Shown: positions 1 to 47,368 of the stretch, in pieces
How the letters are laid out: each line of letters opens with the position of its first letter
Numbering within the stretch: position 1 is the stretch's first letter
Origin: Hyperoplus lanceolatus
Lineage: Eukaryota; Chordata; Actinopteri; Uranoscopiformes; Ammodytidae
Reading direction: 5' to 3'
DNA length: 64,000 nucleotides
Assembly (NCBI GenBank): GCA_026929865.2
Contig: CM049414.1
Span: forward strand, 248,001 to 312,000
Notes under the pieces: generated by a model
Database searches by the model: none
What the model was told of the DNA's origin: nothing
The model's input: only the letters and a program-made list of their open reading frames with translations
Translations under genes and position numbers: made by a program

Positions 1-859
1 ACTTAGCGATGTTGTCGCTATATTTACCGACTTTTCAGACACCTCTGGCGACGTTTTCTTCAAAAAAGGGACCAGAGACAAATCTAGCTACTTTTTCTGG
101 TGTTATTGGTGACTTTTTTGCTCAAGTATCGCTCTTTACTCTAATCAACGATCAGCGGTGCCTCCCCTGCCTCTCCCCCTTCCCAGGGCACTGACAGGCG
201 GCAGAGTCCTCGCACAGCAGTCCCTCCCAGCTGCGGACAGAGCAGGAGATATACACCTCTCTGCTCTAGTGTTCCTTTAGCATCCCAATTAGCAGTTGTA
301 GTACGCCTCTTTTAAAGTCTATGAGTAGTGCTTATTGAAACTGTGAGCATGTATGATTACTGCTAGACTTAACATTATCACGTCGGTTTTCTATGCAATT
401 GTCATGTGACTGTATAAAAAGTAAATAGCCTTCAGTCGCTAATAATATTATAAGAGACTGAAGTATTATTAAATTATAATAATGTTATATATAGGCTATA
501 AGTATTATTAATATTACATCTCACATGCTTTTCCATACTGATTGTATGTGCATAATGCACTTTTTCTTGTAAAGTGTCTTAAGTATCTTAAAAAAAAAAT
601 ATTATTTTGATGAACTGTTCTGCTTTTATTGTTGTGTAGTCAGACACTTTCCCAGGTTCTTAAATGATGGACTTCAATGACAAACATATTCAAATAGTTT
701 ATTTACAGCCAAAACAATTATGAATATATTTTCTCAACAATGATATGAAAATGAGTTTTGTTTTAAAAATATGTTGAAACATTGCACTTTGTGGGAAATC
801 ATCAAATGCACATGGCAATATGTCCTCATCAGAGTATCTGCTTGCGTTCAGAGTCATTC

Positions 860-18625: not shown

Positions 18626-19074
18626 TTTCCAGCCGATAGGCCCCATGCCCTGGAAGTAAGGGACTTCCGCTTAACAGCTCTATGGCAGCCGGTCGAGCCG
18701 AACTCGTTCAAATTTCCTGATTGTTTCTGTCACGCTCGGGTCGTTTCTGTCATGTTTCCATGTATAGTAACGCTGCCGCTCAGGCAAGCTCCGGCTGCAT
18801 GCCCCCACCTTCCTGAAAATTTCCCGCCGCTGGAAGGAAGGTAACCAATCACAACGGAGTGGGGTTTGCAGCAGGGGGGGGAGGGGCGGAGAAGCTCAAA
18901 GCAGTGTGTAGAGAGAGACTGCTGTGCTCGCTAGGGTAAGAAGAAGAGTGTCCCGAAAATCTACATAGTTTTTTGTGATGTGATTCGTGTCAGGTTGCTC
19001 TATAGCAGTTTTTAACAAGAAATGAAGACCTGAAAAGTAGTATAATAGGATCTCTTTAATAATAAACAGCGGGT
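18626..19074. mobile_element. MITE-like repeat, copy 2, inserted in the R2-like ORF
   Basis: It shares GGTAACCAATCACAACGGAG with copy 1 at 12160. The right end reads AGTAGTATAATAGGATCTCT near 19060, the complement of the TTAAAGAGAxCCTATTATG tip. The R2-like reading frame loses its family resemblance at this border, so this element probably truncated it. Confidence 0.55.
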
Positions 19075-20628
19075 CACCCCTCAATTGATCTTTCGAGGTT
19101 AAATAAAGGAAAATTAACTTGCCGGAGGGTAACCTTTGAAGGTGACGTTGTGCGCGCATACACTTTGTGGGGCTAGACTTTCCTCCCTGAAGCAGGTCTT
19201 GCAAGTAACTGATCTCACTGTTGGTCCAAGCCGCCTTGGACCCCTTCGCTGCCTTAGTCTTACATTCCTCCATGTAGGCCCCGCGGTGCTTCACCCGCAT
19301 ATGTTGGCTCAGCCCTCTCTGAGATCCAAAGGTTTTCACGCACAGTCCGCACGGCTGGCCCACCTGTTGTTCTCCTTTTCTGAACACAGTCCCGCATTGG
19401 GCTGCATGGTGCACTGCCGAAGCTGCCAGTCGACATGAGGTTGCACATCTTCTGCATATGTACAATGTCTTTCTCGGTCGATGTACCTTTCTGAAGTGGT
19501 CTGCAGCCTCCTTCAGAGTAGCAAGGGCTATTTCGCATAGGGTACAAGTTTGCCCTAGCCACGGTACCCTTATGCCGAGGATCACGGTGTTGGGCAGGGC
19601 CTTCTTGGTGGCCCAAGAGTTCTTCCAGTCCTTATCCCAGCTCATCAGGAGTAAGCTCTCTTTTGCCTTAGACGTGGGGAACAGGACACGCTTGGCCATG
19701 CACCTGTTTTTCGCTTTTGTAGGGCTTGACCTACTCACTGTTCCTGGTGCCAAGCCCAGGGCTCTCACTGCCAACAAGGCACGATCACGGATCGTCGTTT
19801 TCCTTAGGCGGCCCGGACTGAGGGACAGAGAGCCTTCCCCCAGCCTGGATCGGACGAAACCCGGAGGTACTCTCCGGGACGGAGTGGTCATTTTGGGAAA
19901 GTGCAGCCCAAAATTCCTAGTGTAAGCGCTGTTGCGGGAGTATCACTGCCAATTAACTGCTCGTTTGGAATCCTCAGATAGTTAAGTAATTATGGTCTCC
20001 ACATTCAACATTTCCCGCCACCTGGATACAGTATCGAAAATTGATCATCATTGCAAGGTCTTTAGGATATCGGCATATCCACGCTGTCAGAAGGGCGACC
20101 AGCGTTCCACTTGAACCAATTGCTGGTATGGTATCAAGTGACAGCATCCACTCCCCCAGGTTAAAGCAGTTTCGGGGACAATGTCCCCTCATGGTTTGCA
20201 TGTAGTTGTTGCCTGGACTGCCAGAAAAACAGGCCCTGGGTCGAGAAGGCAATCCCTGTCCATTAGGCACAAAATCGAGGCAATCAGCTGGAAAGGTCCC
20301 CTCAAAAACGGGTTCGGTTTCGGAGTGGTCCCCAAGGTGCGCGCGTCCCTAGCCCGCTCAGGCGTCCCCTATCCACAGGGCCCACAGTAGTGGCAGCCCC
20401 AGGGGGTGATGTCCCCTCATTGCTCACATGTGGTAATTGGGGGTTCCCTGTTGGCCCACGCACCCACCCCAATGCTTCCAGTATACCGGGCTTGTCCCTT
20501 CCAAATCGGAACCATGGTTGTCTTTCAACAGTCATCCAAACGTTCTTGGTATCATCTCATCTGTCTGCTCAGATGGACCTCCTCGTGGCGCCACTTAGCT
20601 TGATGCCGGCTTATCGGCCGAGAGGCAA
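19075..20628 (-). mobile_element. R2-type non-LTR retrotransposon, 5' part
   Basis: The minus strand runs from an 18S rRNA junction near 20628 through ~740 nt of untranslated sequence to an ORF starting at 19891. The ORF has the finger arrangement of three-zinc-finger R2 elements. The reverse transcriptase and endonuclease parts are missing, lost at or before the repeat beginning near 19074. The leader repeats the motif ATGTCCCCTCAT (plus strand, 20182 and 20411). R2 leaders normally carry an HDV-like self-cleaving ribozyme; I cannot confirm one here by eye. Confidence 0.72.
19089..19891 (-). CDS. R2-like retrotransposon ORF, N-terminal fragment
   Basis: This is the N-terminal DNA-binding part of an R2-type polyprotein. 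Counting from Met at 19891, the first finger is C116-x2-C119-x12-H132-x4-H137. The second is C146-x2-C149 with H162 and C166. The third is C181-x2-C184-x12-H197-x4-H202. A Myb-like stretch follows at W222 (WTNSEISYLQDL). The order CCHH, CCHC, CCHH plus Myb matches what is known of three-finger R2 elements, whose fingers and Myb read the rDNA target. An open frame continues to 18896, but residues past ~260 look like read-through into a MITE. The start is the first ATG; R2 proteins may also start without a standard AUG. Being next to 18S rDNA supports the call. Confidence 0.75.
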
Positions 20629-20860
20629 CCCCGCATGGGTCTTGGGTCTGATAAATGCACGCATCCCCGAAGGTCAGCGCTCGTTGACATGTATTAGCTC
20701 TAGAATTGCCACAGTTATCCAAGTAACGTTGGAGCGATCAAAGGAACCATAACTGATTTAATGAGCCATTCGCAGTTTCACTGTACCGGCCGTGTGTACT
20801 TAGACTTGCATGGCTTAATCTTTGAGACAAGCATATGCTACTGGCAGGATCAACCAGGTA
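20629..20860 (-). rRNA. 18S rRNA, 5' terminal fragment (~232 nt)
   Basis: On the minus strand 20860 begins TACCTGGTTGATCCTGCCAG, the universal 5' end of eukaryotic 18S rRNA. It continues through GCATATGCTTGTCTCAAAGA, GCGAATGGCTCATTAAATCA and CTAGAGCTAATACATG to about ACCCATGCGGGG near 20629. There it leaves the 18S consensus. Small differences from the vertebrate consensus (for example AACGTTACTTGG) suggest a non-functional or diverged copy. The rest of 18S is absent. Confidence 0.95.
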
Positions 20861-21250
20861 GCCCCTCGCTTCGCGGGGGGTGGCCGGACATCCGGCGCAC
20901 CCGCCAACCGCGCGCAGAGGTGCGGGGGCCCTGCCGTGGACTCCCAGCCCTTGCGGGCGTGGAGGCGTCAGGGCCTGATATCGATTAGTGGGGTCCCGTG
21001 GGTTGCGGGTAGGGTTTGAAAAACATTGTGTTCACCGGAGGCCCCGCCGCAGTACGGGTGGGCTTCCCCGGGAGGAAGCCACCACCCAGCGTCGGGGTCC
21101 GTCGTAGGACATCTGGGGGAGACTTGATCCCGCTACCGAGCGGTCGACCGTGAGGAGACGGGGGGCCGCTAACCCGCAGGCCGGAGGAACCGTCCGCCCG
21201 AACACCAGCTGGGCTGGCCGGCGGAGGCCCTCCGATGGCGGGTCACGTAT
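20861..21250 (-). other. 5' external transcribed spacer of rDNA (probable)
   Basis: A strongly GC-rich block lies immediately upstream of the 18S 5' end on the minus strand and stops abruptly near 21250, where AT-rich DNA begins. Position and composition fit a 5' ETS fragment. No RNA polymerase I promoter can be recognised by eye. Confidence 0.6.
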
Positions 21251-22570
21251 GCCAATCGATCATTTGCTTGTCATTTTGACGTATTGTCTAGCTCACTCGC
21301 TTTTTTTATTTGTATCTATTTTAAAATGGCTAGATAAGCGTGTCTGTTCTTTATTTTGTTTTGCCATTTGGACAGCTTGTCTAACTCACGCCTTGTTCTT
21401 TTTTTTGTATTTCGAATTTGTTGGGTGAGCACGGTTTGTTTGTTTAGTGTGTTGTCATTTTGACAGTTTGCTGGATTGTTCATAGTGTTACTAGCTGTTA
21501 TGGGGTGAATTGTACAAGACTTATGTGGGAAGCTAGCACAGGTTACACGAAAAAAATTCCGTCGTGTACACGGTTAGACATTTTTGTAAACGTTCACACC
21601 CCTACTTTACAATAAGTCAGTCATCTTGGCTAACGTCTACGCGCCTAACGTCGATGATGTAGGGCCTTATGATTTCCGCTATAACGAAAACGCGGACGGA
21701 ATCGGGCAATAAAAATGGAATCTGCTTGTTAACACGGAATGTCACGAAATTCGCCATTATTTTGGTGAAATTCAATTTCCAAGGCAAAGGGAAACAACAC
21801 GGTTGAAATTAAAGCAGAACTAGGGAGGAATTTTGGTTTGGCGACATCTAAAGACCAAACTACTGCCGTGAAAAGTAGAGCCTTGCTGCAGGATCGCTAA
21901 TGTAACACACAGCGCCAAACCCCTTTCACAAATCTGTCTATTCAATGTTTACTTATGAATGTATCCATGTACGTAACTCTGACATGTACATAACTTAATT
22001 TATTGTTAATAATATGGTCTGTTTATAAATTCGGCATATGATTAAAGCATCTAAAAGCACGTAATCATGTTAAACGTTTACTGTTTTTAAGTTATTAATG
22101 CCACTCGCTCCCGCAGATACGGGAGTGTTGTATTATGGAACGGCCGCTGTGGTACGAAATTCCAGTCTCAACAATGTTTTCTACACGCAATTCGAGGCGC
22201 GCTTGTACGACTGTTCAACACCCACTCACATTCGCAGTTTCACAGACTGATCGCTCTCTATGTCAAACTATTTTTGAACGGCATCGCAATTAATTTCTTT
22301 TTGTGAATGACACAGGTTTTAGCAACATTGTCATGCATGTATTGGTCCCTTGCAGGCTGACCATGACGCAGTGGCCGCCTGCATTCATTGTGTGGTAACG
22401 CTCATCACTGCTTTATAACTGCTCTCCCGGTTACACGGTAGAGTCCAAATCCATACCGTAGGGCAACTTCATACCCGTGTACTTCCTATACCGTTTAAAC
22501 CGTAGACCTCTACATTTACCCCTGAACCATTCATATCAATTGTCTCTTTGCAACTTTTCACTATGTGGTT
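21251..22570. other. AT-rich repeats, with a tiny LINE endonuclease fragment
   Basis: At about 21617-21655 the plus strand reads SVILANVYAPNVDDV, resembling the LxNVYAPNxDD motif of L1-type endonuclease domains. Immediately after comes TAGGGCCTTATGATTTCCGC, a common fish repeat end. The rest shows no gene. Confidence 0.4.
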
Positions 22571-46510: not shown

Positions 46511-46669
46511 TAAATTAACTTGAAAAAACAGCTGCCGCTGAGTCTGGCTCCTCCCACCGCAGGTCCGTCCCTGTCCTATCTCACGTCCGGAGAGAAGCTT
46601 TGAATACTGGCTCAAGTCATTCTCAACTAATTGTTTCTCTTTAGAGCCGAAACCTTTTATAATAGGATC

Positions 46670-47368
46670 ATGGCTGAATCTAGTGACGCAACGATGTCTG
46701 AACGAGAAACCTCACTACCGGACCATGACACGGAGGTTTTAATGACTGAAGAAGTGGAGTATTCAATGCTTGACTGGCCTATTGCGGACATGCCACCACA
46801 GCCGCAGGCACAGAACAGAGATGACTTTTTACTGCATTATTTTCCAATCTCACACGATTTGAACACAGTCAACAAACAGCTGTTGTTATCCGACGAGAAC
46901 CAAGGGACTACCTTAACAACGGGAGAAGAACAGCTCTATCTTAGCCACCCGGACCGCTTCATTAGGTGGCGTCAGGTCCGGAGTACACAAAGTTTGACTG
47001 GCCGCTGTTATTGGGAGGTGGAGTGGAACCATAAACGAGTGAAAATAGCATTGACCGGGAAGAGAATCGCACCAAGTATCGAGTCCGTATTCGGATTCTT
47101 CGGCACGTCGTGGGAATTGGAGCGCACCAGCAAGGGGAATGTAAAATTCCTAACTGGCGGCGTCGAAACACACGTGTCGGATCCTCAGACAGAGAGATTG
47201 GGAGTGTACCTGGATCACGTTGAAGGCGAACTGTCATTCTACAAGGTCTCCAAAAACGGCATGACTCTCCTCCACACACTGCAGAACACGTTCCCGCTGC
47301 CCCTCTATGCTGGACTTTGGTGTAATGGTTATCACGGAGCCTCTGTTGAGTTTTGTGAGTTGAAGTAA
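46670..47368 (+). CDS. PRY-SPRY (B30.2) domain protein
   Basis: An intact 232-aa product. Residues 1-60 are acidic and Pro-containing with no recognised domain. A PRY-like segment at ~65-118 has LLLSDENQGT, LSHPDRF, LTGRCYWEVEWN. SPRY is at ~119-231, ending RLGVYLDHVEGELSFYKVS, then LYAGLW and ASVEFCEL. In fish such domains are protein-interaction modules at the end of TRIM, NLR-B30.2 and related immune proteins; here no RING, B-box, NACHT or coiled coil precedes it. The start at 46670 (ATCATGGCTG) fits Kozak. A splice acceptor (TTTCTCTTTAG) lies just upstream at 46644 and the frame is open back to it, so this may instead be the last exon of a longer gene. The expected WSLxC core is replaced by GTSWELE. 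Confidence 0.82.
   Translation: MAESSDATMSERETSLPDHDTEVLMTEEVEYSMLDWPIADMPPQPQAQNRDDFLLHYFPISHDLNTVNKQLLLSDENQGTTLTTGEEQLYLSHPDRFIRWRQVRSTQSLTGRCYWEVEWNHKRVKIALTGKRIAPSIESVFGFFGTSWELERTSKGNVKFLTGGVETHVSDPQTERLGVYLDHVEGELSFYKVSKNGMTLLHTLQNTFPLPLYAGLWCNGYHGASVEFCELK

What the first reader, a model, noticed from the sequence alone, without database searches (positions are those of the whole stretch)
19075..21250. R2-type retrotransposon joined to the first ~232 nt of 18S rDNA
On the minus strand the order is 5' ETS, then 18S positions 1 to ~232, then a ~740-nt leader, then a three-zinc-finger plus Myb ORF of R2 type. Known R2 elements insert in 28S. Insertion in 18S by an R2-related element is, as far as I recall, described for hydra (R8), and for mosquitoes by R1-clade R7. 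A vertebrate R2-like element in 18S would be new. The alternative is an rDNA rearrangement or template jump that produced a chimera. The truncated 3' end prevents reading the second junction.
Basis: partly seen in the sequence, partly recalled or inferred. Interest (0 to 1): 0.86.

Follow-up and report, generated by a model that had tools for sequence, protein, structure and literature searches.

The report
R2 retrotransposon fused to ribosomal RNA
In what is likely a fish genome, a broken copy of R2, a mobile element that lives in ribosomal genes, is joined to the first ~240 bases of the 18S ribosomal RNA, likely because its copying enzyme jumped from its own RNA onto ribosomal RNA rather than because the element learned to insert into the 18S gene.

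Summary
On the minus strand: 5' ETS (21262-20861), 18S nt 1 to ~240-243, a ~730-nt leader, and an open R2-type frame of 258 codons (19891-19118) with three zinc fingers (CCHH, CCHC, CCHH) and a Myb-like stretch; R2 homology then stops beside another repeat. The 18S-target reading is not supported. The only two 28S R2 sites found in this genome (≤3 mismatches) lie 3' of R2 copies C2 and C4, behind the 28S-like 3'UTR known from fish R2; copy A, a close relative of the window copy, is sister to C2 in the tree. No 18S was seen 3' of any copy examined. Five of 11 R2 copies carry pre-rRNA 5' sequence upstream, ending at ETS 102, 106, ~117, 18S 82 and 18S ~240. Four of them, and within ~4 nt an R2-free rRNA pseudogene, begin at one ETS base beside unrelated flanks, as reverse-transcribed pre-rRNA would. 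The three ETS joints lie within 15 nt of each other and may not be separate events, so this support is moderate. Best reading: template-jump chimera (R2 RNA to pre-rRNA), a new acceptor for known R2 behaviour (U12 snRNA, tRNA in Drosophila). Main rival: large deletion inside an R2-bearing rDNA unit.

The parts
20861..21262 (-). 5' external transcribed spacer (ETS), starting at TGATCGATTGG, the base at which three other R2-linked loci also start (one R2-free rRNA pseudogene starts ~4 nt in); putative pre-rRNA 5' end
   Evidence: same sequence before 18S in other loci; sharp common 5' boundary beside unrelated flanks. That it is the transcription start is inferred.
20618..20860 (-). 18S rRNA nt 1 to ~243 (nt 241-243 could belong to either side)
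   Evidence: Rfam, E 1.1e-41; end set by comparison with L038:8567-8645
19892..20617 (-). R2 leader (5' UTR), 5' extent unknown; stretches recur in copy C2 and, inverted, beside two 28S fragments
19118..19891 (-). N-terminal part of the R2 ORF, 258 codons, no stop; truncated before the reverse transcriptase
19481..19546 (-). zinc finger 1, CCHH (CTLC...H...H)
   Evidence: read from the translation
19394..19456 (-). zinc finger 2, CCHC (CRRC...H...C)
   Evidence: read from the translation
19286..19351 (-). zinc finger 3, CCHH; weak Pfam C2H2 matches below cut-off
19133..19237 (-). Myb-like stretch (AWTNSEISYL...)
   Evidence: by position and sequence; no Pfam Myb match
19060..19117 (-). unassigned sequence between the R2 break and the next repeat
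18752..19059 (.). dispersed repeat near the broken 3' side, also at C20:207547-207848, 205228, 189887 and 2111430

Best explanation
The window holds a 3'-truncated copy of an R2 retrotransposon joined to nt 1 to ~240 of 18S rRNA and 402 nt of 5' ETS, and the joint likely arose when R2 reverse transcriptase jumped from R2 RNA onto the 5' part of a pre-rRNA, not by insertion at an 18S target. Shown: the joint itself; the kinship with copies at the 28S R2 site; five R2 copies with pre-rRNA 5' sequence upstream; a shared ETS start base beside unrelated flanks. Inferred: that this start base is the pre-rRNA 5' end; that the enzyme copied R2 RNA first, then switched to an 18S/ETS stretch, either of a separate pre-rRNA fragment or of the same R2/pre-rRNA co-transcript, and ran to its 5' end; that the 3' part was lost later or never made. 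The chimera would be a dead by-product, as it lacks the reverse transcriptase.
For: (1) Relatives use 28S. The 28S R2-site pattern (≤3 mismatches) occurs at only 2 places in the 807-Mb assembly, each 3' of an R2 copy (C2: ~1.7 kb, C4: ~3.2 kb behind the ORF end) with a homologous 3'UTR end in between. By eye C2 carries a diverged 28S-like stretch before the canonical site, as described for one fish R2 lineage in PMC5035012. 28S sequence also stands upstream of C3. (2) Copy A, by DNA identity close to the window copy, is sister to C2 (SH-aLRT 99) within an 18-row set of fish R2 and metagenome proteins with Labrus and Sparus (98), itself in a 21-row set with Beryx (99) (the window copy has no reverse transcriptase and is not in the tree). 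(3) Joints differ: window 18S ~240 | leader; A 18S 82 | ORF interior; C1 ETS 106 | leader; C69 ETS 102, then 62 nt, then R2 3'UTR-like sequence; C2 ETS ~117 within its leader. A fixed 18S target would not give these. (4) Window, C1, C2 and C69 (twice, one tandem array) begin at the same ETS base, the R2-free pseudogene L008 ~4 nt in; flanks are unrelated. By a count entered by hand, 5 of 11 loci that start inside ETS fall in one 5-nt bin (corrected P 1e-5); with 7 further loci, 5 of 18, P 2e-4. (5) R2 template jumps in vivo to U12 snRNA and tRNA are published (PMC3414825, passages); vertebrate A-clade R2 proteins jump templates in vitro (PMC12180492, passages).
Against: The joints of C69, C1 and C2 lie at ETS 102, 106 and ~117: they may be one inherited event, or jumps to one RNA end. 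If C69 and C1 count as one, the start-base P is 0.004; with only window, C1 and L008 independent it is 0.08. All 9 merged R2 copies on C20 below 2.2 Mb lie on the minus strand (sign P 0.004), which fits remnants of one old rDNA array better than scattered cDNA insertions. The window copy and A are broken at the 3' side, so target-primed insertion is not visible there; no target-site duplication was seen by eye. A begins 61-64 nt into the ETS, not at the common base. In C2 the ETS lies inside the leader, and in C69 R2 3'UTR-like sequence precedes it. No R2 ribozyme was found at the joint, so it is not shown that the jump left from a mature R2 5' end. No intact rDNA unit was found, so the transcription start could not be mapped and the spacer is unknown.
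Confidence: 0.52

Rival explanations
1. DNA deletion inside an rDNA unit that carried R2 in its 28S gene: the gene order ETS-18S-...-28S-R2 collapses to ETS-18S(1..240)-R2 when everything between is lost, by repair or as a large upstream target deletion at R2 insertion.
For: All five joints have rRNA sequence upstream and R2 downstream in the same sense, as the order in the unit demands; upstream of C3 stand separate 28S pieces (model ~1740-1950 and ~2340-2390) and then an R2 leader; all 9 merged copies on C20 <2.2 Mb share the strand of the 28S fragments. Deletions of upstream 28S at R2 5' junctions are known (PMC2718515, passages).
Against: A rDNA unit would bring its spacer and promoter; instead the ETS begins at one base beside flanks that differ between window, C1, C2 and C69. 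The window's 5' flank matched nothing else in the held loci; a genome-wide search for it did not complete.
Confidence: 0.33
2. An R2-clade element with 18S specificity (R8-like) inserted at 18S ~240; the window copy lost its 3' part.
For: A clean 18S nt 1-~240 | leader joint; three zinc fingers as in R2A, the clade in which hydra R8 lies (PMC5035012).
Against: Only one place has this joint (18S-site pattern, ≤2 mismatches: 2 hits in the assembly, the other an 18S fragment without R2 beside it); kin sit at the 28S site; copy A breaks at 18S 82; no 18S was seen 3' of the copies examined.
Confidence: 0.05
3. Assembly artefact or a patchwork of unrelated repeats joined by later rearrangement.
For: No intact 18S or 28S was found in the assembly and such regions misassemble; the region is dense in broken repeats.
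Against: Four further R2/pre-rRNA joints in the same genome, one of the same plan ~50 kb away, on a 29-Mb contig.
Confidence: 0.08

Closest known systems
R2 template-jump chimeras in Drosophila (R2 with U12 snRNA or tRNA at the 5' end; PMC3414825, passages)
   Same: A cellular RNA fused in sense to the 5' side of R2; for U12, its 5' end
   Different: Acceptor here is pre-rRNA (ETS plus 18S); the 5' flank is not 28S; some joints are inside 5'-truncated R2; the window copy is 3'-truncated
Fish R2 lineage with 28S-like 3'UTR and moved 5' boundary (R2Gs, R2Bs, R2Sb; PMC5035012)
   Same: Three zinc fingers; kin C2 and C4 at the 28S R2 site behind a 28S-like 3'UTR; tree position near Beryx and Labrus proteins
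   Different: The window copy has no 3' end, and its 5' side is 18S, not 28S
R8 of hydra (R2-clade, 18S target; PMC5035012, PMC7650587 passages)
   Same: R2A-like zinc fingers; 18S upstream of the element
   Different: No 18S on the 3' side, single copy, kin at 28S
LINE-mediated chimeric retrogenes (L1 with U6; tripartite pseudogenes in Magnaporthe, PMC2104539, listing only)
   Same: Template switching between RNAs during reverse transcription
   Different: A different element family; details not compared here

Membership tests
R2 clade, R2A type | Three N-terminal zinc fingers, two CCHH and one CCHC | tested here: met
   (spacing read from the translation); definition from PMC5035012
R2 clade, R2A type | Myb domain after the fingers | tested here: inconclusive
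   AWTNSEISYL... at the expected place; no Pfam match
R2 clade, R2A type | Reverse transcriptase of R2 lineage | not testable with these tools
   absent from the window copy; kin A and C2 have it and fall among fish R2
R2 clade, R2A type | Insertion at the 28S R2 site | tested here: not met
   the window copy has 18S on the 5' side and an unrelated repeat near the 3' side; kin C2 and C4 are at the site. It is therefore filed as R2-derived, not as an R2 insertion
R8-like 18S-specific element | 18S on both sides of one site in several copies | tested here: not met
   one copy, no 18S on the 3' side
R2 template-jump chimera | Foreign part is a cellular RNA running to its own 5' end | tested here: inconclusive
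   common ETS start base at several loci; the start as pre-rRNA 5' end is inferred
R2 template-jump chimera | Jump leaves from R2 RNA and the product is inserted by target priming | not testable with these tools
   3' side lost; no ribozyme or mature R2 5' end found

The most novel reading that the evidence does not exclude
R2 elements of this fish carry in their leader a ~25-nt stretch complementary to the 5' end of 18S rRNA, with looser complementarity on into the ETS (copies C1, C2, C3), which would hold R2 RNA against nascent pre-rRNA and steer the reverse transcriptase to jump there, so that R2 repeatedly captures the very start of the ribosomal transcript as a new 5' end.
Probability: 0.14. 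Interest if true: 0.7.

Novelty: new variant of a known kind. Interest (0 to 1): 0.43.

Why it matters
If true, pre-rRNA is an acceptor for R2 template jumps in a vertebrate, more than once in one genome. That bears on how R2 ends its copying and on by-products to look for when R2 proteins are used to insert transgenes in rDNA. It also removes a tempting false case of an 18S-specific vertebrate R2.

Tried and rejected
Rejected: an 18S-targeted R2 (see rivals). Ribozyme: Rfam on both strands around the joint (E up to 5) gave no HDV-type match; a hand-made descriptor found none at the window joint; it gave hits in the ETS of C1, and one hit in 1 of 5 shuffles, so not used. The fold of the joint is no better than shuffles (z 0.34). 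Searches of phages and of viral and bacterial contigs found no fish R2 with flanks: only two distant matches in bacterial records (29% identity). The question of an empty site for the window's flanks, and a genome-wide list of ETS starts, stayed unanswered because the genome search machine was busy.

Print: searches listed (2 of 2, 12 of 12, and 20 each of 150, 36, 53 and 110 papers) no title or abstract start on a vertebrate R2 in 18S or on R2 fused to the pre-rRNA 5' end; the library lacks most subscription journals. PMC13188248 (2026 R2 survey: outline with abstract, section 5, passages) has no occurrence of '18S' in its main text. PMC5035012 was read in parts 1-4 of 5; PMC3414825, PMC2718515, PMC3774820, PMC12180492 and PMC7650587 in passages only; all others as listings.

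Mended on re-check: joints first counted in query numbers (ETS ~113, ~119, ~130) are ETS 102, 106 and ~117; since they lie so close together, confidence was lowered from 0.60 to 0.52 and the deletion rival raised from 0.27 to 0.33.

Full report
What is there. The window is C20:248001-312000 of an 807-Mb genome in 527 contigs. On the minus strand, ETS runs from 21262 to 20861, 18S from 20860 to ~20618, a leader follows, then an ORF from ATG 19891 with 258 open codons. The 18S part is nearly intact: over the 116 positions covered by at least four other fragments of this genome it differs from their majority at one, where the fragments are split 8 to 7. Between the window copy and copy B, over 206 codons, dN is 0.14 and dS 0.73, as expected of elements that kept a working protein for most of their separate history.

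Relatives in the same genome. A DNA search with the window piece gave 47 matches and one with the reverse-transcriptase part of copy A gave 10; both are lower bounds. With the finer BLAST of the fetched stretches they merge to 11 R2-like copies: A (C20:213-216 kb), the window copy (267 kb), B (591-593 kb), 1.62 Mb, 1.94 Mb, C4 (2.12 Mb), C3 (2.127 Mb), C2 (2.133-2.137 Mb), C1 (2.149-2.152 Mb), C69 (an array) and C360; two fragments of 82-83 nt are left out. The copies at 1.62 Mb, 1.94 Mb and C360 were not fetched and the 5' end of C4 was not resolved.

3' ends. The 28S pattern at the R2 site, with up to 3 mismatches, has 2 hits in the whole assembly, one 3' of C2 and one 3' of C4, with a homologous 3'UTR end before them. 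In C2 a diverged 28S-like stretch is followed from the R2 cut site by clean 28S (Rfam). This is the anatomy reported for one fish R2 lineage (PMC5035012). The window copy and A are broken at the 3' side; B ends in non-rDNA. Rfam on the fetched 140 kb shows one 18S fragment, on the other strand and without R2 beside it.

5' ends. Five of the 11 copies carry sense pre-rRNA 5' sequence: the window copy to 18S ~240, A to 18S 82, C69 to ETS 102, C1 to ETS 106, C2 to ETS ~117 within its leader. 28S pieces stand upstream of C3. B has neither. The window copy, C1, C2 and C69 begin at the same ETS base, and ~4 nt in so does L008, a rRNA pseudogene without R2, while A begins 61-64 nt in. The clustering is significant if most of these are separate events and weak if they are not; the nearness of the C69, C1 and C2 joints makes their independence doubtful.

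Mechanism. R2 enzymes jump templates in vitro (PMC12180492, passages) and in vivo to U12 snRNA and tRNA (PMC3414825, passages). R2 RNA is made as part of a pre-rRNA co-transcript (same source), so the acceptor is at hand. A jump from R2 RNA to 18S or ETS, copied on to the transcript's 5' end, gives ETS-18S-R2 in one sense with a fixed start. Joints at ETS 102-117 could then be jumps to one short 5' fragment of the pre-rRNA, or one inherited event. The route does not by itself explain why all 9 merged copies on C20 below 2.2 Mb share a strand, which speaks for an old rDNA array there. Both may be true: jumps at an array that later decayed.

A lead. Copies C1, C2 and C3 hold in their leaders a stretch complementary to the 18S 5' end, with looser complementarity into the ETS (16-mer core with 1, 1 and 0 mismatches; 0.12 matches with up to 2 mismatches expected by chance in the 234 kb searched). 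It could hold R2 RNA on pre-rRNA. The window's own leader lacks it, so it cannot be invoked for the window copy without loss of that part.

Limits. No intact 18S was found at the site tested and no 28S R2 site outside those of C2 and C4; no spacer, no reads, and the search of the genome with the 18S family did not complete.

Noticed in passing
C20:2153504 (L042), 2137100 (L041), 2129564 (L040), minus: R2 leaders of C1, C2 and C3 contain a stretch complementary to the first bases of 18S and, more loosely, the end of the ETS.
   Followed up: partly
window 20578-20588 (+): CCTCCTCGTGG, the most conserved R2 ribozyme stretch according to PMC5035012, lies antisense to the ORF ~33 nt from the 18S joint; the only exact match in 234 kb (0.11 expected). 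No ribozyme match on either strand.
   Followed up: partly
C20:2115711-2115938 and 2131130-2131226: Behind C2 and C4 the 28S stops at the same place (...AAGCGCCCGG or AAGTGCCCGG) and an inverted R2 leader follows, so either a duplication or a recurrent joint.
   Followed up: partly
C69:27001-37000 (L044): Tandem array of R2 ORF pieces, R2 3'UTR-like sequence and ETS 1-102.
   Followed up: partly
L005, L006, L007: A family of three closely similar loci that by eye resembles a piggyBac-type transposase gene carries ETS plus 18S nt 1-120 inside.
   Followed up: no
L017, L019, L020, L025, L027, L028: A minisatellite-like repeat family carries 18S pieces between nt ~4 and ~106; other short 18S 5'-end fragments are dispersed in the genome.
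   Followed up: no
window ~46631-47365 (+): An open frame of 245 codons that by eye resembles a SPRY/B30.2-type domain.
   Followed up: no
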